From IMG/VR virus record IMGVR_UViG_3300030116_006045, positions 1-63,605 of that record: a stretch of 63,605 bases of DNA. One strand, 5' to 3'. Shown in pieces: positions 12,939 to 34,859 of this stretch (its first letter is position 1; every line of letters begins with the position of its first letter). This DNA comes from a virus. The translations under genes were made by a program, and so were the position numbers. The notes below the pieces were generated by a model. The model was not told where the DNA came from and did not search any database. It was given only the letters and a program-made list of their open reading frames with translations.

Positions 12939-13108
12939 CCCTGTTTATTTTTATCCTTATTTACACTAATATCGCGTGGCGGAGAGTAATCTCTATCAGC
13001 TACTCGAAATACGCCACAGTGCATATTGCCGTTGATTTTATGATTATTGTAACCACACACTCGCTTTATCCCACAATTAGAACAGACGCGCAAGCACTTT
13101 CGCGGCAT
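12935..13108 (-). CDS. Small Cys-rich zinc protein (57 aa)
   Basis: It begins MPRKCLRVCSNCGIKRVCGY and has a further Cys at MHCG, giving a four-to-five Cys zinc knuckle with a basic, Lys/Asn-rich C-terminus. ATG 13108 overlaps the methyltransferase stop (TGATG). Such proteins recur along this array; function unknown. Confidence 0.55.
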   Translation of the reverse strand: MPRKCLRVCSNCGIKRVCGYNNHKINGNMHCGVFRVADRDYSPPRDISVNKDKNKQG

Positions 13109-14322
13109 CAAACCCACTCCATATCTTCGATTTTTTCATTGACTTTGGATATAGAACGAATACGATCTGGAATAAACTCGGCGTATTCAGGATTAAGCTC
13201 GCACAGAATAGCTTCTCGACCATGAAGTAAGGCTACACCAGCTGTTGTCCCAGATCCACCGAACGGATCTAGGACTACTGAAGGAACGATAGGATGCTCA
13301 TCAAGAGGGAGATCACTATGATAGACCAACATTGTTCTAACCTTTTCTTTGGTGGCTGACTCAATCATCCTTCGTTTTACGTCGCTTGCGCCTTGAGCCA
13401 TAGCTGATTCGTAATCTTTCAAGTTAGATCCGCCGTAATTACCTTTTGAGTCAGCACCCCACCCAGTTTCAAGAAGTTCCTTTTGACTCATCTTAGGGGG
13501 TATAACCACTTCTTCTCTTACGAGCTTACCATGACACTCACAGTTAGGACGCCAGGTATCTAAGTTCTTGCCGGTGCTTGAAATGAACTGATCTGTACCA
13601 GCTCTGACCCAGGGTTCTCCGCAATCAGCACAGCATCCTTTAGCACTACTACCAGCTAACACGCATGGTTCTATCAGTTCCGGCGGATATACAGCAAAAT
13701 GCGCCTTTGGGAAGGATTGGGGGTTTATGTGCCAAACATCACGCTTATTCCTGTTGTTTTCACCTTCTTTGATAGCCTCATGATCGTAGAAGTAATGCTT
13801 GTTCTTAGTTAGCATAAAGATAAACTCATGCGATCTGGTGCATCTGTCTTTAACAGGCTCCGGCATACACTTCGGCTTCGCCCAAATAATATCCTGTCGA
13901 AGATACCATCCATCGGCTTGAAGTGCAAAAGCTACACGCCAGGGGATGCCAATGAGATCCTTCGGCTTGAAGTTATTACCTGTCTTACGCTTGAACGACT
14001 TGCCCCCATCCTCATGATAGTTATTGAGATGAGGTCGAAATCGTGAGTTTGTCTGATGACCTCCATTTGAACCGGCGTAAGAGTCGCCCAAGTTAAGCCA
14101 TAGAGTGCCTGTTGGTTTGAGGACACGCCACACTTCTTGAAATACTTGAACCATGTTTTCAATGAAAGCTTCGGGTGTTTCTTCTAACCCGATTTGATCG
14201 TCGTTTCCATAATCTCGAAGGCCGAAGTAAGGCGGTGATGTAACACAACAATCTACTGATTCATCAGGTAGCTCGGAGAGAGTTTCACGGCAGTCGCCTA
14301 AGAGGATCTTAACACCCTTCAT
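13108..14322 (-). CDS. Site-specific DNA methyltransferase (N4-cytosine / N6-adenine, beta-type order)
   Basis: The catalytic motif TSPPYFGLRDYG (about residue 29) comes before the SAM-binding motif DPFGGSGTT near the C-terminus, which is the permuted order of beta-class amino-methyltransferases. Between them is a Cys-rich insert (CCADCGEPW ... CECHG), probably a zinc loop used in target recognition. No restriction endonuclease is adjacent, so it probably protects viral DNA or marks it. S/TPPY motifs occur in both m4C and m6A enzymes, so the modified base cannot be assigned. Confidence 0.88.
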   Translation of the reverse strand: MKGVKILLGDCRETLSELPDESVDCCVTSPPYFGLRDYGNDDQIGLEETPEAFIENMVQVFQEVWRVLKPTGTLWLNLGDSYAGSNGGHQTNSRFRPHLNNYHEDGGKSFKRKTGNNFKPKDLIGIPWRVAFALQADGWYLRQDIIWAKPKCMPEPVKDRCTRSHEFIFMLTKNKHYFYDHEAIKEGENNRNKRDVWHINPQSFPKAHFAVYPPELIEPCVLAGSSAKGCCADCGEPWVRAGTDQFISSTGKNLDTWRPNCECHGKLVREEVVIPPKMSQKELLETGWGADSKGNYGGSNLKDYESAMAQGASDVKRRMIESATKEKVRTMLVYHSDLPLDEHPIVPSVVLDPFGGSGTTAGVALLHGREAILCELNPEYAEFIPDRIRSISKVNEKIEDMEWV

Positions 14323-14465
14323 TCCTCTTCACCTTCCCATGAATATGTTTTCTTAGAGTAAGCAGCTGCATAACCCTCTCTCCATTTTTCGTAGCATTTC
14401 TCACACCAACCATGAATCGACATCATCATAACTTCATTGTCGCATCCTTCTGTCATGCATTTCAT
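14319..14465 (-). CDS. Small zinc-ribbon protein (48 aa)
   Basis: The ends are MKCMTEGC and, 16 residues on, WCEKC, so a CxxxxC...CxxC zinc site is likely. The C-terminus is aromatic then acidic (YSWEGEEE). The stop overlaps the methyltransferase start by ATGA. It lies between two methyltransferase genes. Confidence 0.55.
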   Translation of the reverse strand: MKCMTEGCDNEVMMMSIHGWCEKCYEKWREGYAAAYSKKTYSWEGEEE

Positions 14466-14482
14466 TATAACACGAAATGATC

Positions 14483-15826
14483 TCATAACCACTCAGCTAC
14501 TCCTTTCTTACCTATACCTTCAAACTCCAGATCCTCAACAGCCTGTATTCTTTCTCCAAGCCATCTCATAAGAGGCACAGCCATACTGTTACCCATAGCC
14601 TTGAAACGATGTCCATCTGGACAATCCTCTCTCGCCTTTCCTTTCCATTCAATTAGAGTATAGTTATCAGGAAATCCCTGGAGCCTTTCACACTCAATAG
14701 GTGTGAGGCGTCTAACTCTCATGGTAGATTCGATCATAGCTGTGTTTGTGCGTACATCACTCGCGGTCATATCGTGTGCTGTTAATGTACCAACGGCATC
14801 AGCTTCTCCCCAGGTTTCGTGATCGGTTTCCGATTGGGGTCTTCTTATTTTTCTAAATGGTATAGTTTCACCAGCTTGAGCTACAAACGGTTTCATACGA
14901 CTACCGGCTGACGCCATCAGACCCTTGACTTCTTCATTGAGAGAGATAACCTCATCTCGCTGATTAGCAAAGAACGACAGGACACGGGGTTCAGCCACAG
15001 CTGGTGAGGTCGGTACAGCTCCGTTAGCTTTCAACGTAGGAGCCACTTCTTCGTATATCCCATAGTTCTGTCCAAAAGTATGATCGAATGCGACCAGATC
15101 AGTGCCGTCTTTGTAATCCCTTGCTTTCAAAGTGCTAGCTGTCTCATCACAGGCGTAGTCACCAAAAGCACGTAATCTCGCACCTACTCCTTTTGCTGAG
15201 ACAAGTTCGCTTGATTGTCCAACGCCATTTGTAGTAGGTGGGGCAGTGTCTTGCCTCGACGGGACGCTCGGCGCAGAATCCCCCGACAAGCTCGTTCGCT
15301 CAAATAGTACCGCTGCGGGACGTCGCCAATCTCCAGAAGCGTGTCCGACAACAAACAAACGTCGGCGTCTTTGGGCCACTCCGAAGTAGCGAGCGTCCAA
15401 GATTCTCCAGGCGCAAGAATACCCGATCCGCTCCACTTCTGCGAGGAAGGTTCCAAAATCCCGTCCTTCGTCTGATGACAAGAGACCAGGGACGTTTTCA
15501 AAGAGAAACCACTCCGGTCGAATATCTCGAACAATGCCGAGATAGTGGAGGGCCAAGTTCCCACGCGGGTCATCCAATCCAAGTCGTTGTCCCGCGACTG
15601 AGAAGGATTGGCATGGTGATCCCCCGACGACGAGATCGAGCTGTCCGGCGTATTGTTTCCAGTCATGCTTAGTCACATCTCCCACATTCGGAACTGTCGG
15701 GTAGTGGTGAGCAAGGACTTCTGATGGAAACTCGTCGAACTCTGCGAAGATTTGAGGCTTCCAGCCGAGAGGTTCCCAAGCGACTGTTGCCGCTTCGACT
15801 CCGCTGAATAGGCTTGCGTATCGCAC
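14483..15826 (-). CDS. dcm: DNA (cytosine-5) methyltransferase, Dcm family
   Basis: It has the C5-methyltransferase motifs in order: RYASLFSGVEAA (SAM binding), GGSPCQSFSVAGQR with the catalytic Cys, FENVPGLL, RRRRLFVVG, and a C-terminal GFPDNYT / MGNSMAVP segment. I chose GTG 15826 rather than ATG 15847: it gives the family's usual start (MRYASLFSG), and a TATA-like box lies 26-27 bases upstream, as for a leaderless message. The enzyme methylates cytosine in viral DNA. It is the middle of three methyltransferases in a 4.3-kb stretch with no restriction enzyme. Confidence 0.93.
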   Translation of the reverse strand: MRYASLFSGVEAATVAWEPLGWKPQIFAEFDEFPSEVLAHHYPTVPNVGDVTKHDWKQYAGQLDLVVGGSPCQSFSVAGQRLGLDDPRGNLALHYLGIVRDIRPEWFLFENVPGLLSSDEGRDFGTFLAEVERIGYSCAWRILDARYFGVAQRRRRLFVVGHASGDWRRPAAVLFERTSLSGDSAPSVPSRQDTAPPTTNGVGQSSELVSAKGVGARLRAFGDYACDETASTLKARDYKDGTDLVAFDHTFGQNYGIYEEVAPTLKANGAVPTSPAVAEPRVLSFFANQRDEVISLNEEVKGLMASAGSRMKPFVAQAGETIPFRKIRRPQSETDHETWGEADAVGTLTAHDMTASDVRTNTAMIESTMRVRRLTPIECERLQGFPDNYTLIEWKGKAREDCPDGHRFKAMGNSMAVPLMRWLGERIQAVEDLEFEGIGKKGVAEWL

Positions 15827-15848
15827 AAACAAACCCACTGGGACCATC

Positions 15849-15856
15849 CATATAAA
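15849..15856 (-). promoter_or_regulatory. TATA-like box upstream of the C5 methyltransferase
   Basis: The minus strand reads TTTATATG, centred 26-27 bases before GTG 15826. This position fits an archaeal TATA box serving a leaderless transcript and decides the start of the methyltransferase gene. Confidence 0.45.
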
Positions 15857-15868
15857 TCATCTGTATAA

Positions 15869-17389
15869 TCAAAGCCACTCAGCCTCCGGTGGGAGTTCTA
15901 AGCTGGTTCCCATATCTGTTTCAACGAGATCAGCTTCGCTCCAATGGGCCATTCTTGCGGTAGCTATATCGGCATACTCTTGAGATATTTCACAGCCGAT
16001 AAAGTCGAATCCTTCAAGCAAAGCCGCAATACCTGTTGTTCCAGATCCTAAGAACGGATCGAGAATCTTACCTCCTGGTGGCGTTACTAACCTACACAAA
16101 TACCGCATCAGTGCGACAGGTTTCACAGTGGGGTGTATGTTCTTTCTAAGCTTATTACCTCGGTTACGTGGGTTATCTGAACCAACACCTGTCGTATCTT
16201 TTCTATCAGTAACTTGAGCTGATTCAAAATCTTCTAAACCAGCTTCTCTTTCTTTTCTTGAAGCCTTAGCACAATAAAAGAATCTTGCAGCTGACGTATC
16301 GACATCATCAAACCCTGGGTGTGCGCCCCCACCCATACCCTCTCCGTACACTTCGTTCTTATTGTTGGGTATGTATTCTTCGTGGTGCATATTCACAGCC
16401 GATGAGTGTTTGGTATCAGGGAACTCGTCTCGAACTTCATCACTACCATCATGGATCACATTCGCAGGGTATCTACCTGAAGGTGATCCTGTCTTTACAT
16501 TCAAAAAGAATCGAGATGCACCTCCTTGATCGTTAAACCCATGTGTTTCAGAACCTCCCTCCCCATGTATCTTACCTACCATCGTTAATTTCTCGCCTTC
16601 TTGCTTATTTTTTCGCACCGCATCACTACTTCTACTCGTACCACTTTGTTCATCAAGCATCTCACCAGCTTCTCCATCAAGAATAACATTAGCTGGAAAG
16701 CGACCATTTTCATGAGCTTCAGTTTCAGTTCCTTCTGATTCGCCCCAATGACCTTTCACTGATTTACGATTAGTATTCTTTGCATGATCCTCGCCCGCCT
16801 TTATTCTGCAATCGTCGATATTGATTGCGCCCGTATCATGTTTGAGGACATTGTTGGGTATATTATTTTCAGATATGGGCTTACGAGCTAACACGCATGG
16901 CTCATGAGCTGGTTTGAGAGCTGTTCCCCAACCTTCCCACTTCTTAGCGTCATCAGTAGCGGGTGCTGTAATCCTTGAGTCGTTACCTTTACCATTGAAA
17001 TCAATAGCACTGTTCTGTTCTCTATCGTTAGGGTTTGGGCCGAGATCTACTCTTTCAGCCCCTGCAGCTTTGTCTATTGCTTTTGATATATTGAGCGACT
17101 TAGGAAAACCAGATCCGTAAATCCACATAATTTGATCACGAATCTCAAAACCCGCATCTTCCACGTTGATAGCTAAACGATGATATGTTCGAGAACCAGC
17201 GAAAGCGATTAGATGACCACCAGGTTTGAGAACACGTAAGCACTGCGCCCAAAGCTCGCGTGAGGGAACATCGTAGTCCCATTTCTTACCCATAAAAGAA
17301 AGACCATACGGAGGATCTGTGACTATACTATCTACGCTGTTCTCTGGTAGCTCCTTAAGTCGCTCTAAAGAATCTCCAACCATTATCAT
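15869..17389 (-). CDS. Site-specific DNA methyltransferase (DNA-N6/N4 amino-methyltransferase)
   Basis: The catalytic motif TDPPYGLSFMGKKWD (about residue 28) and the SAM motif DPFLGSGTTGIAAL near the C-terminus mark a second permuted amino-methyltransferase of about 506 residues. The large middle part, with repeated RFPANVI / RYPANVI segments, is a long target-recognition region. HPTVKPVALMRYL just before the SAM motif is typical of DNA adenine/cytosine-N4 methyltransferases. ATG 17389 overlaps the polymerase stop (ATGA). Confidence 0.9.
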   Translation of the reverse strand: MIMVGDSLERLKELPENSVDSIVTDPPYGLSFMGKKWDYDVPSRELWAQCLRVLKPGGHLIAFAGSRTYHRLAINVEDAGFEIRDQIMWIYGSGFPKSLNISKAIDKAAGAERVDLGPNPNDREQNSAIDFNGKGNDSRITAPATDDAKKWEGWGTALKPAHEPCVLARKPISENNIPNNVLKHDTGAINIDDCRIKAGEDHAKNTNRKSVKGHWGESEGTETEAHENGRFPANVILDGEAGEMLDEQSGTSRSSDAVRKNKQEGEKLTMVGKIHGEGGSETHGFNDQGGASRFFLNVKTGSPSGRYPANVIHDGSDEVRDEFPDTKHSSAVNMHHEEYIPNNKNEVYGEGMGGGAHPGFDDVDTSAARFFYCAKASRKEREAGLEDFESAQVTDRKDTTGVGSDNPRNRGNKLRKNIHPTVKPVALMRYLCRLVTPPGGKILDPFLGSGTTGIAALLEGFDFIGCEISQEYADIATARMAHWSEADLVETDMGTSLELPPEAEWL

Positions 17390-19614
17390 AACCATTGTGT
17401 ATCACTTACTCCGTTCATCGCATTTATTATTGGCTGCATCGACCATCCGACCACTGAATAAAGTGGCTCTACTTTTTTTACTACAAATCTTTCAACCATG
17501 ATACGCCATCCTATTTCGGCTATACCTTCTATTTCTTTGGGATCATCGAAAGCTATGTAGTCGCCTTGATTACTGATAGCTACCTTGAAGAAGTCGCCTT
17601 CTTTGTAGCCCTTACCGAGATGCCTGTTAGCCCAGGCTGCAGCCGCAGATGGACCGGATAGTGTTTCGTACTTGTCGAGATTCTTCTTGAGTTTGCCTTT
17701 CATCAGAACCTCACTTGGGTCCAGATCGCCACCCAATACATTCTCTATCAGCTGGCATAGCCTATCATCGACTAAGGACTGTTTCTCACCTTCAAGGATA
17801 GCATCAAGTGTAGTTTTCATAGATTTCTTCATTACGGGGGGCATACGTGCCTGTATAAGCTCGATACCCTTCACATACGTCTGTGGGTCATGGAACGCCC
17901 CATCTGTCCATAAAACGCGAGCAGCGTATCTATTCTTAGCATTGATGAAGAATGAATCGCACCACTTCTCGAACTCTACTACGATTGGGGCCATATCCTC
18001 GTTCAAGTCGGCACAAAGCTGGACACCGGCATCAGGTGTAGCCACATCAACCATAACAGAATCAGTGTGTCCATAGCGAACTTTATGGCCGCGAGCTTCG
18101 CATAGATCACGAAGAAGAAACAAAGTTTGTCTTGATGTAAAGGTGATTGCAGCTGCAATCTCAGGGTGATACAGACCATATCTACTGTCACCACATACAC
18201 CATACAGAGAAGCGACGAGAGTTTTGGTAGCGTGTTGCATAGCATCCCACCTGTGCTTGTTGTCAGGATCTGACTTCATCTTCGCCTTGTATTCATTACG
18301 AAGGTCAGTTAGTCGATCCATAGTGCGTACTAACAACCCCTTCTTCTCCTTACTGAATCGTGTTCCATTACCTATGTCGTCGCCATCTTCGCTAAGGGTG
18401 TCCCAGGATATATTGTGTAGTGCCGCGTTGCTATGATACATCGCCTTGATGTCCATAATACCGATGTGTCGATACACACCTGGTTCGGGTTCTTGAATAT
18501 CAGCACCTTCGTAGTCCACCTTATCGAACTGTGGTTTAGATGGGATTCTTTGTTTGAAATCGGGATCCCGTAAGAAAAGCTGAGTAGCCATCTTGGTAAT
18601 ATGAGGGGTGTCTCTGAAACGGATCTGGGTAAGGAACGACAGTGTAATGTAATGTTCGCTTACATTGAGATATTCGTCCAGCTTAGGCATCAGACGCACA
18701 TCTTGTCGATTGTAGTCCACATAGGTAGCAAAGTCAGTGTAGTAAGTATCGTGGCCGTCCGGTAGCTCCGTCTTGCGTTCTTTTAGTGCCTCCCACGCTA
18801 CATCGTCGAGCTTCTTTGAAGCAAGCTGACCATGCTTTAGCACCCACAGTTTCTCGAAACCAACCATAAGATCGAAGCAAAGACGACCAGGGATGGGTTG
18901 ATCCCAATCCCCATAGGAATAAACGTGTTTCTTGAGCGGCGATAGTGTTCTTGGATCTAGCCCAACCACCTTCATCCTCTTAGCTAACTGAGAAATATCA
19001 GCTCCTTGTAGATACCAACCAATCAACATATCTGGGTCACATCTACTCATATGATTTACGAAATGTTCGATCATGTCTCTTTCGTTATCGAAGGCTAATA
19101 AAACGGGGTACATCTCAATAAACTGATGACCTTCAGGGTGTTTCTTACAACCGAGTGACTCATGCTTCCCTGCAGGAAGTTCATCAGATATGGCCCATGT
19201 GAACATAGCTTCCTCGTAGGAATCCCATACTGATATGATAGTGATCTCACCACTCTCGGTTTTCCACTCCATATCAAGATACCACTTACGATACTGATAG
19301 TAAGGGAAGGGATTGACCCTATCAGCAAGAACACGATTCACCCAGGGTATGTTTGCTTCCCATGTCTGTACTTGTTTCTTAAGCTGGTGTGGCTCGTCGG
19401 TATCACCGAATGTGAGCTTTACCAGATCCTCACCATACACACCTTCGTAACCATCCCTTTTTCTTATGGCTTTGAAAGGCATTCGGGATAAGTCCTTTTT
19501 CTGTACGAAACAGTAAGGGTGATGATCGTTGATGTGTGTTTCTATTCTCGACAATGTGTCTGGGTTGCGATGGCGCACTATTACAGAACGTCCTCTTGTG
19601 CGGTCGGCAATCAT
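17386..19614 (-). CDS. polB: Family B DNA polymerase
   Basis: The N-terminal 3'-5' exonuclease motifs are visible: DMEW (Exo I), GWYLQGADI (Exo II region) and YNRQDVRLM (Exo III). The polymerase domain has motif A as DIKAMYHS, motif B within KTLVASLYG, and motif C as YGHTDSV, where family members normally have YGDTDS. The first motif C Asp is thus His (about residue 516), but the second Asp, the one generally considered essential, is kept. At 742 residues it is about the usual archaeal PolB length. It is the replicative enzyme and lies close to the clamp, clamp loader and SSB-like genes. Confidence 0.93.
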   Translation of the reverse strand: MIADRTRGRSVIVRHRNPDTLSRIETHINDHHPYCFVQKKDLSRMPFKAIRKRDGYEGVYGEDLVKLTFGDTDEPHQLKKQVQTWEANIPWVNRVLADRVNPFPYYQYRKWYLDMEWKTESGEITIISVWDSYEEAMFTWAISDELPAGKHESLGCKKHPEGHQFIEMYPVLLAFDNERDMIEHFVNHMSRCDPDMLIGWYLQGADISQLAKRMKVVGLDPRTLSPLKKHVYSYGDWDQPIPGRLCFDLMVGFEKLWVLKHGQLASKKLDDVAWEALKERKTELPDGHDTYYTDFATYVDYNRQDVRLMPKLDEYLNVSEHYITLSFLTQIRFRDTPHITKMATQLFLRDPDFKQRIPSKPQFDKVDYEGADIQEPEPGVYRHIGIMDIKAMYHSNAALHNISWDTLSEDGDDIGNGTRFSKEKKGLLVRTMDRLTDLRNEYKAKMKSDPDNKHRWDAMQHATKTLVASLYGVCGDSRYGLYHPEIAAAITFTSRQTLFLLRDLCEARGHKVRYGHTDSVMVDVATPDAGVQLCADLNEDMAPIVVEFEKWCDSFFINAKNRYAARVLWTDGAFHDPQTYVKGIELIQARMPPVMKKSMKTTLDAILEGEKQSLVDDRLCQLIENVLGGDLDPSEVLMKGKLKKNLDKYETLSGPSAAAAWANRHLGKGYKEGDFFKVAISNQGDYIAFDDPKEIEGIAEIGWRIMVERFVVKKVEPLYSVVGWSMQPIINAMNGVSDTQWL

Positions 19615-23744: not shown

Positions 23745-24017
23745 TCAAGGCGTATATGACGGCGATTCGTCGCCCCCTTCTATCTGTCCGTGTAGCAAAG
23801 CATGAGCCATTGAGCTGTCGTATGCGACAGAACCAGGACCGCAACACACCCACTCACATTCATCACAAGCAGCTATGATCACCATCTCATTGAATAGGGT
23901 AACACCAGGCAACCTAAGAATAGGTATGCACTCACCAGGTAGCCACTCATTCCCTTCAGGATCAATATAAGACATAGCAAAGGTTTCTTCCTCGAACATC
24001 AAATCAATTATATCCAT
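23745..24017 (-). CDS. Hypothetical protein, paralogue of the gene at 34563-34859 (90 aa)
   Basis: It shares with the 34563-34859 product an opening YIDPxxNxW...IPxL pattern, a TLFNEMVI / TFYNERVI segment, paired Cys and a CGP motif near the middle. The central Cys residues (CDECEWVCCGP) could bind metal. It overlaps the DpdA-like gene by 10 bases. Function unknown; duplication within the virus suggests a useful, perhaps host-directed, small protein. Confidence 0.55.
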   Translation of the reverse strand: MDIIDLMFEEETFAMSYIDPEGNEWLPGECIPILRLPGVTLFNEMVIIAACDECEWVCCGPGSVAYDSSMAHALLHGQIEGGDESPSYTP

Positions 24018-24796
24018 TTGACTCTTGATTCTTTTTCCGACTTGAGTAATTTATGTCGTTGCGCCCACTCGATAGCATAAGTCATACAATTATTACACGC
24101 TAAGGGGGGATCTTCTCTTTTTTCACATAACGAGCATTTTTTCCCCGTTTTATGTGCTAGATATCGGGCTTCTACACTCCATGCAAATGAATCGGCACTG
24201 TGAAGGAATCTACCGTACTTATCTAACCCACGAATCTTTACCCCAAAACCATGCAGCTTCAGTCCCTTTCGATAGAACCTTTCTACAATATCAGCTATTT
24301 CATCTTTCGATTGTCTCCTACAAACCGAACCCAACCCTACCAGATCCTCCTTTACTAAATCCACACCAGCTTTAGCATACATATCAAAACAATTCTCGTA
24401 ATCCTCCAAAGACCAACCTTGAAGAACAGGGATAAATGGGAGATCAGGAGCTGTTGAACGCAAGTAAAGAAAATTATCTACTGTTCGACGTTGATGTTCT
24501 TCGACGGATAAACCGGTCTTTTCTATGATCCAGGGTTCAACCATCCAATCTTGAGGTGCAGCCCACTGAAGACCACCCCATGACTGATACCGCCTAACAG
24601 ATTCTATGTACGAATCAGCATCTATTGTCCATGTGCCATGTAAGTTCAGCTCGGTGAAACCGCCTGAATCCAAAGCCCATGTGCTTATTGCGTTACGTTC
24701 TTTCTTTGTGGTCATCAAGGTTCGATGACTAATGAATAAAGGATGCTTTGTTCTTTCAAGCCAAACAGCTTTGTGGCATCCAATGAAAAACCGCAT
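24008..24796 (-). CDS. dpdA: TGT-like DNA deazaguanine transglycosylase (DpdA-type)
   Basis: The protein carries LDSGGF (about residue 43), the hallmark of tRNA-guanine transglycosylases. It also has the pattern common in viral DpdA-type homologues: APQDWM, EEHQRRTVDNF, PVLQGW, LVGLGSVCRRQ, LHGFGVK and a C-terminal CSLC...CNNC zinc site. DpdA enzymes swap guanine for 7-deazaguanine bases in DNA. No preQ0 synthesis genes (folE, queC, queD, queE) are present, so the base would have to come from the host. The Mom-like gene is directly upstream (1-base gap), which strongly suggests DNA hypermodification. Confidence 0.78.
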   Translation of the reverse strand: MRFFIGCHKAVWLERTKHPLFISHRTLMTTKKERNAISTWALDSGGFTELNLHGTWTIDADSYIESVRRYQSWGGLQWAAPQDWMVEPWIIEKTGLSVEEHQRRTVDNFLYLRSTAPDLPFIPVLQGWSLEDYENCFDMYAKAGVDLVKEDLVGLGSVCRRQSKDEIADIVERFYRKGLKLHGFGVKIRGLDKYGRFLHSADSFAWSVEARYLAHKTGKKCSLCEKREDPPLACNNCMTYAIEWAQRHKLLKSEKESRVKWI

Positions 24797-24797
24797 A

Positions 24798-25415
24798 CTA
24801 TCGATCTCCTAAGTGATATACTTCTTCTCGAATTAGCTTCATTCGTTTTCTTTTTTCAGAAGGACTACCCAAAATAAAAATAAAACGATGTTTTGATTCT
24901 CTCCTTACAGGTTTCCAACCAAACGATCTAGCTTGCTCCTTTGTGATATTTTCACCACACTGTCGAGGATGTCTTAAACGAACACCGTCATAATAGAACG
25001 TGGTTTTAGAGGTCATGCCGGAATAAATAGCATTTGAAGCGCGATAGATCGTCCCATTGTGACCTTCGGTCGAATCCGCATAACTGACCAACCCCCAAAT
25101 ATCCGGTCTTACAACACGACACAATTTGAAACATCTTGAAATAAACCACGATTCCGTATTCTTAGGTGTGTCGTCGATCAACACTAAACGATGTAGTTCT
25201 TTTACGTGATCCTTAAGCTCAGGTCCGAAGATATATGAGCGTACGGCTTCTGAACCAGGAGTAGCTATTAGCATAGCACCAATCAACCTCCCATCATCGT
25301 AAAGACCGAAGCATGGGTTAGGGCTTCTCATCGCTCCGTGTGAGTAATGATGCTTAATTACGAACTCTTTACCAACCTTAGCTGAAATATGCCTTACTTC
25401 GTAGGTTTCTTTCAT
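24798..25415 (-). CDS. Mom-like DNA modification protein (GNAT-fold)
   Basis: The 205-residue protein matches the phage Mom-like pattern: HHYSHG near residue 22, the sheet FGLYDDGRLIGAMLI, ELHRLVLIDDTPKNTESWFI, and SYADSTEGHNGTIYRASN. Mom of phage Mu converts adenine to a carbamoylmethylated form that blocks many restriction enzymes. Here it probably modifies a DNA base, possibly with the adjacent DpdA-like enzyme. The exact product cannot be told from sequence. Confidence 0.7.
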   Translation of the reverse strand: MKETYEVRHISAKVGKEFVIKHHYSHGAMRSPNPCFGLYDDGRLIGAMLIATPGSEAVRSYIFGPELKDHVKELHRLVLIDDTPKNTESWFISRCFKLCRVVRPDIWGLVSYADSTEGHNGTIYRASNAIYSGMTSKTTFYYDGVRLRHPRQCGENITKEQARSFGWKPVRRESKHRFIFILGSPSEKRKRMKLIREEVYHLGDR

Positions 25416-34562: not shown

Positions 34563-34859
34563 TTACTCCATATCTAGTAAATTGATCTGCTGAACGGCTC
34601 GGCTCTTCAGGTTCTCCCTTCGAGCAAACCAAACAGACCAGGCTCTTGTCTCAGGCCCACAGAAGGCCCAGCTTTCATCAGGCTCGAATCCATCGTGGAG
34701 CTTTTCATGATTCTCATCGAAGATAGGAGGACAACCAGGACAGGTGACTACAATCACTCTTTCGTTGTAGAACGTGCCGTCCTTGAGTACGAGCTGAGGG
34801 ATCACATCGTTAGCTGACCATACGTTCCTGTTGGGGTCAATATAGATGTAATCAGTCAT
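34563..34859 (-). CDS. Hypothetical protein, paralogue of the gene at 23745-24017 (98 aa)
   Basis: It opens with YIDPNRNVWS and carries TFYNERVIVVTCPGCPP and later FCGPETRAW, matching YIDPEGNEW, TLFNEMVII and CCGPGSVAY in the other copy. The Cys residues may hold zinc. Function unknown. Confidence 0.55.
   Translation of the reverse strand: MTDYIYIDPNRNVWSANDVIPQLVLKDGTFYNERVIVVTCPGCPPIFDENHEKLHDGFEPDESWAFCGPETRAWSVWFARRENLKSRAVQQINLLDME

What the first reader, a model, noticed from the sequence alone, without database searches (positions are those of the whole stretch)
24008..25415. Adjacent DpdA-like and Mom-like genes: a possible two-step DNA hypermodification module
The DpdA-like enzyme has the transglycosylase LDSGGF and a zinc site, and the neighbour has the Mom pattern. 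DpdA inserts 7-deazaguanine into DNA; Mom decorates adenine. Finding both side by side in an archaeal-type virus is unusual. The window has no preQ0 synthesis genes. Archaea make preQ0 for tRNA archaeosine, so the virus could take the host's precursor. The two enzymes may modify different bases, or the Mom-like protein may act on the deazaguanine.
Basis: partly seen in the sequence, partly recalled or inferred. Interest (0 to 1): 0.8.

Follow-up and report, generated by a model that had tools for sequence, protein, structure and literature searches.

The report
Viral DpdA and Mom DNA-modification genes
A probably archaeal tailed virus carries, side by side in one operon, two intact-looking enzymes that should chemically disguise two different DNA letters (guanine and adenine); each enzyme type is known, but the pair is rare, and comparison with sister viruses shows that the second was slotted in next to the first.

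Summary
The 262-aa gene at 24008-24796(-) is a DpdA-family DNA guanine transglycosylase (Pfam E 4e-74; best structural match the solved preQ0 insertase DpdA, Z 18.7). The 205-aa gene at 24798-25415(-) is a Mom-family enzyme (Pfam E 1e-34; best structural match phage Mu Mom). Catalytic residues are conserved in both; the genes sit one base apart behind the clamp-loader gene.

Sister viruses show three states at this site: empty, DpdA alone, and Mom+DpdA (this window only). The window's DpdA groups with the sisters' DpdAs; its Mom comes from a lineage without DpdA. Of about 60 DpdA-bearing records, 2 others have Mom, not adjacent; of 49 Mom-bearing records none has DpdA. So these are independent, stackable modules that most likely mark different bases (G and A). 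A two-step pathway on one base is not supported.

No preQ0 gene was found; archaea such as Poseidoniales carry folE-queE-queC, so host preQ0 is plausible, but the host is unproven. Caution: the measured phage of this DpdA subgroup (Orion, by inference) showed no modified guanine, in a host lacking preQ0. Known enzymes in a new combination; moderate interest.

The parts
24008..24796 (-). DpdA-family DNA guanine transglycosylase, 262 aa; D43 (LDSGGF), D83, D202; CxxC-x9-CxxC near the C-terminus
   Evidence: PF23859 E 4.4e-74; model pLDDT 93.2; 7ui4 DpdA Z 18.7; invariant Asp residues in 45 relatives
24798..25415 (-). Mom-family DNA modification enzyme, 205 aa, GNAT-like fold; H23, Y24, R76, S89, D114, Y124
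   Evidence: PF25680 E 1.1e-34; model pLDDT 89.4; Mu Mom 8bv8; conserved residues
25417..26415 (-). Replication factor C small subunit, first gene of the conserved neighbourhood; upstream border of the variable site
   Evidence: NF001679 E 9e-47, below that model's equivalog cut-off; 66% identical in sister viruses
23745..24017 (-). 90-aa Cys-containing protein of unknown function, downstream border of the variable site; present with or without DpdA
   Evidence: Conserved in sisters; no family hit
13108..14322 (-). N6/N4 DNA methyltransferase (context: further DNA modification)
   Evidence: PF01555 E 9.4e-44; conserved in sisters
14483..15847 (-). C5 cytosine DNA methyltransferase (context)
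   Evidence: PF00145 E 1.1e-56; conserved in sisters
15869..17395 (-). N6/N4 DNA methyltransferase (context)
   Evidence: PF01555 E 2.6e-33; conserved in sisters

Best explanation
The virus protects its DNA with two independent base hypermodifications, on top of three methyltransferases. DpdA swaps selected guanines in the DNA for a host-made 7-deazaguanine (most likely preQ0 from the archaeal archaeosine pathway) by TGT-like base exchange, with D202 and D43 in the places of the TGT catalytic aspartates. Mom adds a carbamoylmethyl group to the N6 of adenines. The mom gene was inserted between the clamp-loader gene and an older dpdA, so the pair is a stack of anti-restriction functions and not a two-step pathway. 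Shown here: family, fold, conserved catalytic residues, operon layout, insertion history. Inferred: DNA as substrate of this DpdA, host preQ0 as donor, adenine as Mom's target, escape from restriction as the benefit.
For: Family hits far over cut-off; structures match DNA preQ0 insertase DpdA and Mu Mom; catalytic residues conserved; three states of one site in sister viruses with Mom only in the window; trees put DpdA with the sister viruses and Mom with other viruses; each gene normally occurs without the other; purifying selection on DpdA in the closest sister pair, dN 0.013, dS 0.246; conserved cassette of three DNA methyltransferases; FolE-, QueE- and QueC-like genes in a row in Poseidoniales.
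Against: No biochemical evidence. The host is unknown. Orion-type mycobacteriophages, whose DpdA appears to be of this subgroup, had no detectable 7-deazaguanine (PMC6884629), though their host lacks preQ0. Dispensable in some lineages: two sisters lack DpdA and two mycobacteriophages carry what look like broken copies.
Confidence: 0.65

Rival explanations
1. Coupled two-step pathway: DpdA inserts a 7-deazaguanine and the Mom-like enzyme then modifies that base, giving a new doubly modified guanine.
For: One-base gene spacing in the same operon; GNAT-like fold could in principle acylate an amine on a deazaguanine side chain (inference).
Against: Mom's close relatives have no DpdA; sister viruses with DpdA have no Mom; Mom residues match the adenine enzyme Mu Mom; tight packing is general in this gene neighbourhood.
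Confidence: 0.05
2. The DpdA homologue modifies tRNA and not DNA.
For: TGT fold, with TGTs within about 1 Z unit of DpdA; phage relatives are annotated 'queuine tRNA-ribosyltransferase'.
Against: Sequence family is DpdA, with no Pfam TGT hit at E<=1; it lacks the long C-terminal region of the archaeal TGT frames (262 aa against 743-805 aa in L204-L207 and others); several relatives lie close to DNA methyltransferase genes.
Confidence: 0.06
3. One or both enzymes are inactive in this virus, for example DpdA has no usable precursor in the host (as in mycobacteria) or is decaying.
For: Phage Orion, apparently of the same DpdA subgroup, has no modification (PMC6884629); gene absent in some sisters; five of 18 Poseidoniales assemblies gave no full-length QueC match, though these may be incomplete.
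Against: All catalytic residues kept; strong purifying selection in sister viruses; many archaea make preQ0 for tRNA archaeosine (PMC5485725 abstract).
Confidence: 0.2

Closest known systems
Singleton phage DpdA of PF23859 / PHROG 1279 (Mycobacterium phages such as Yuna, and the 68-kb type with gp19/20)
   Same: Same sequence family, 43-49% identity, also without preQ0 genes nearby
   Different: Bacterial host without preQ0 pathway; no Mom in the two tested, Yuna and Paola
Solved DNA preQ0 insertase DpdA (7ui4)
   Same: Best structural match, Z 18.7, 238 residues aligned
   Different: 13% identity; 413 residues against 262
Halogranum tailed virus 1 (HGTV-1) gene 215, Mom-like
   Same: Closest Mom among known viruses, 45% identity over 93%; archaeal virus
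   Different: No PF23859 DpdA in that genome
Phage Mu Mom (8bv8)
   Same: Fold and conserved residues
   Different: 25% identity; no adjacent DpdA in Mu
HRTV-29, haloarchaeal virus with DpdA but no preQ0 genes (PMC8651126)
   Same: Same logic: archaeal virus proposed to use host preQ0
   Different: No Mom reported in that paper; sequence not compared here

Membership tests
DpdA DNA 7-deazaguanine transglycosylase | Family profile above curated cut-off | tested here: met
   PF23859 249.5 bits, cut-off 27
DpdA DNA 7-deazaguanine transglycosylase | TGT-like TIM-barrel fold with catalytic aspartates | tested here: met
   7ui4 Z 18.7 and TGTs; D43, D83, D202 invariant in 45. Assignment to TGT catalytic positions rests on motif and a weak profile alignment
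DpdA DNA 7-deazaguanine transglycosylase | C-terminal zinc site | tested here: inconclusive
   CxxC-x9-CxxC present in the window; only C237 invariant, C234 39/45, C224 27/45
DpdA DNA 7-deazaguanine transglycosylase | Inserts 7-deazaguanine into DNA | not testable with these tools
   Needs LC-MS of nucleosides; phage Orion negative in a preQ0-less host
tRNA-guanine transglycosylase (TGT) | PF01702 TGT profile match | tested here: not met
   No PF01702 hit at E<=1
Mom DNA adenine modification enzyme | Family profile above curated cut-off | tested here: met
   PF25680 120.3 bits, cut-off 27.1
Mom DNA adenine modification enzyme | Mom fold and conserved catalytic residues, including the serine whose mutation inactivates Mu Mom (S124) | tested here: met
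   8bv8 top structural and sequence match; S89 aligns with S124, kept in 27/28; H23, Y24, R76, D114, Y124 invariant
Mom DNA adenine modification enzyme | Makes N6-carbamoylmethyl adenine in DNA | not testable with these tools
   Needs LC-MS

The most novel reading that the evidence does not exclude
The Mom-like enzyme acts on the 7-deazaguanine that DpdA installs, making a new doubly modified guanine. It is not excluded, because no biochemical data exist.
Probability: 0.05. Interest if true: 0.85.

Novelty: new variant of a known kind. Interest (0 to 1): 0.45.

Why it matters
It gives a natural three-state comparison at one locus (no enzyme, DpdA, Mom+DpdA) in relatives that share the same methyltransferase cassette, which suggests that viruses stack unrelated base modifications against successive host defences. 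It places Mom and a singleton DpdA together in an archaeal-type virus whose plausible hosts make preQ0, so the doubtful activity of singleton DpdAs becomes testable. If both work, the DNA would carry hypermodified guanine and hypermodified adenine at once.

Tried and rejected
Two-step pathway: rejected as the lead because each gene occurs without the other in relatives. tRNA TGT: no PF01702 hit. Other paired cases among known phages: genes next to Mom in Proteus phage pPM_01 and Salmonella phage SP-031 are not DpdA, and none of the known-phage Mom records tested has PF23859. Host: an RFC-based scan of genomes found nothing; a 16S probe then gave 66 contigs, nearly all titled Poseidoniales or related, used only to ask whether such hosts make preQ0. 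Records PP497040, OR863078, Rosebush and Orion were not held. The papers on four newer 7-deazaguanines and on Mom chemistry were not held. Salmonella phage 7-11 DpdA does not match this Pfam family, so it is no functional anchor. PCNA and 438-aa ATPase profiles found no solved relative. Profile alignment of DpdA with the archaeal TGT was weak (E 0.07). PADLOC and NCBIfam gave no useful hit for either enzyme.

Full report
CHECK OF THE OBSERVATION. The window is 63,605 of the 64,951 bases of one IMG/VR virus record. On the minus strand the RFC small subunit (26415-25417), Mom (25415-24798), DpdA (24796-24008) and a 90-aa gene (24017-23745) follow each other with one-base gaps or a 10-base overlap. 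Profiles identify DpdA (PF23859, E 4.4e-74) and Mom (PF25680, E 1.1e-34), both far above their cut-offs; PHROGs agree.

STRUCTURE AND ACTIVE SITES. AlphaFold models built on window and virus-locus alignments are confident (pLDDT 93.2 and 89.4). The Foldseek matches of DpdA are led by TGTs. In the second look the top row is 7ui4, the DNA preQ0 insertase DpdA (Z 18.7, rmsd 3.9, 238 residues), with archaeal and bacterial TGTs at Z 17-18: fold alone does not separate DpdA from TGT, the sequence family does. D43 in LDSGGF, D83 and D202 are invariant in 45 relatives. Mom's best match is Mu Mom 8bv8 by sequence profile and by structure. H23, Y24, R76, D114 and Y124 are invariant in 28 relatives. S89 aligns with Mu S124, whose S124A mutant the PDB title calls inactive.

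SISTER VIRUSES AND ORIGIN OF THE PAIR. Syntenic relatives, mostly 60-74% identical in the larger replication-region proteins, were found in IMG/VR. Between RFC and the 90-aa gene they show nothing (L130 on a 64.8-kb contig; L125), DpdA alone (L002-L006, L127), or Mom+DpdA (window only). In the empty state the 90-aa gene begins at the RFC stop codon; in the DpdA-only state dpdA does. Mom is absent from the whole 63.7-kb and 64.8-kb sister contigs, DpdA from the 64.8-kb one. In a midpoint-rooted tree the window's DpdA groups with the sister-virus DpdAs (support 0.96), while its Mom lies in a branch with L082-L088 and HGTV-1 (support 0.91). So DpdA is probably old in this lineage and lost in some members, and Mom was added later. 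DpdA is under strong purifying selection in the closest distinct sister pair (dN 0.013, dS 0.246).

HOW RARE IS THE PAIR. Of about 60 DpdA-bearing records searched for Mom, two others have it (L063, about 3.6 kb away; L068, about 1.4 kb away), plus one match below the cut-off. Of 49 Mom-bearing records searched for DpdA, none has it (the positive control rang). Many records are fragments, so absence is not proof. No paper reporting the pair was found, within an open-access library only.

PRECURSOR AND HOST. The record has no QueC and a motif scan of the window found no other preQ0 gene. The virus looks archaeal: RFC small subunit-like clamp loader, PolB nearest to haloviruses at 24%, an ERCC4-type nuclease, Mom nearest to the haloarchaeal virus HGTV-1. 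Its host is unknown. Poseidoniales are a guess, used as a test case: 13 of 18 genomes have a full QueC match and all 18 a TGT, and the two QueC loci that were read show FolE-, QueE- and QueC-like genes in a row. Host preQ0 is therefore plausible; the same idea was proposed for HRTV-29 (PMC8651126).

MECHANISM. Most likely DpdA swaps guanine for host preQ0 in DNA and Mom independently adds a carbamoylmethyl group to adenine (Mu chemistry from established knowledge; the paper was not held). Three methyltransferases (13108-17395), conserved in the sisters, show that the lineage invests heavily in DNA modification. Against full confidence: Hutinet et al. (PMC6884629) found no 7-deazaguanine in phage Orion. 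Orion itself was not held, but 68-kb mycobacteriophages with the gene at gp19/20 match the window's DpdA, so I infer that Orion belongs to this subgroup. Mycobacteria lack the pathway, so that negative does not test the enzyme. Two mycobacteriophage records with a truncated or split match suggest that it can be dispensable.

VERDICT. A real, correctly identified, rare combination of known enzyme families. The two-step idea is not supported; two independent marks on two bases is the best reading.

Noticed in passing
L089, L092-L106 and L110; also L082: Other viral contigs carry two tandem Mom-like genes (about 36% and 30% identical to the window's Mom; in L082 55% and 30%), in several cases about 2-4 kb from a PolB-like gene. 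Why two Moms is unexplained.
   Followed up: no
13108-17395: Cassette of two N6/N4 and one C5 DNA methyltransferases beside PolB, conserved in sister viruses.
   Followed up: partly
23745-24017 and 34563-34859: 90-aa Cys-containing protein next to DpdA, kept in all sisters even without DpdA, with a roughly 31% identical paralogue elsewhere in the window.
   Followed up: no
L007, L011, L035, L063: Singleton DpdA genes of other environmental viruses lie within a few kb of C5 (and in L035 also N6/N4) DNA methyltransferase-like genes.
   Followed up: no
Mycobacterium phages BlueHusk OR475267 and Scrick OR521069: DpdA matches that look truncated (30% of the query) or split over two genes, suggesting dispensability in a host without preQ0.
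   Followed up: no
L200 283-2601 and L201 229-2643: FolE-, QueE- and QueC-like genes in a row in Poseidoniales genomes; names given from sequence motifs and the QueC profile.
   Followed up: partly
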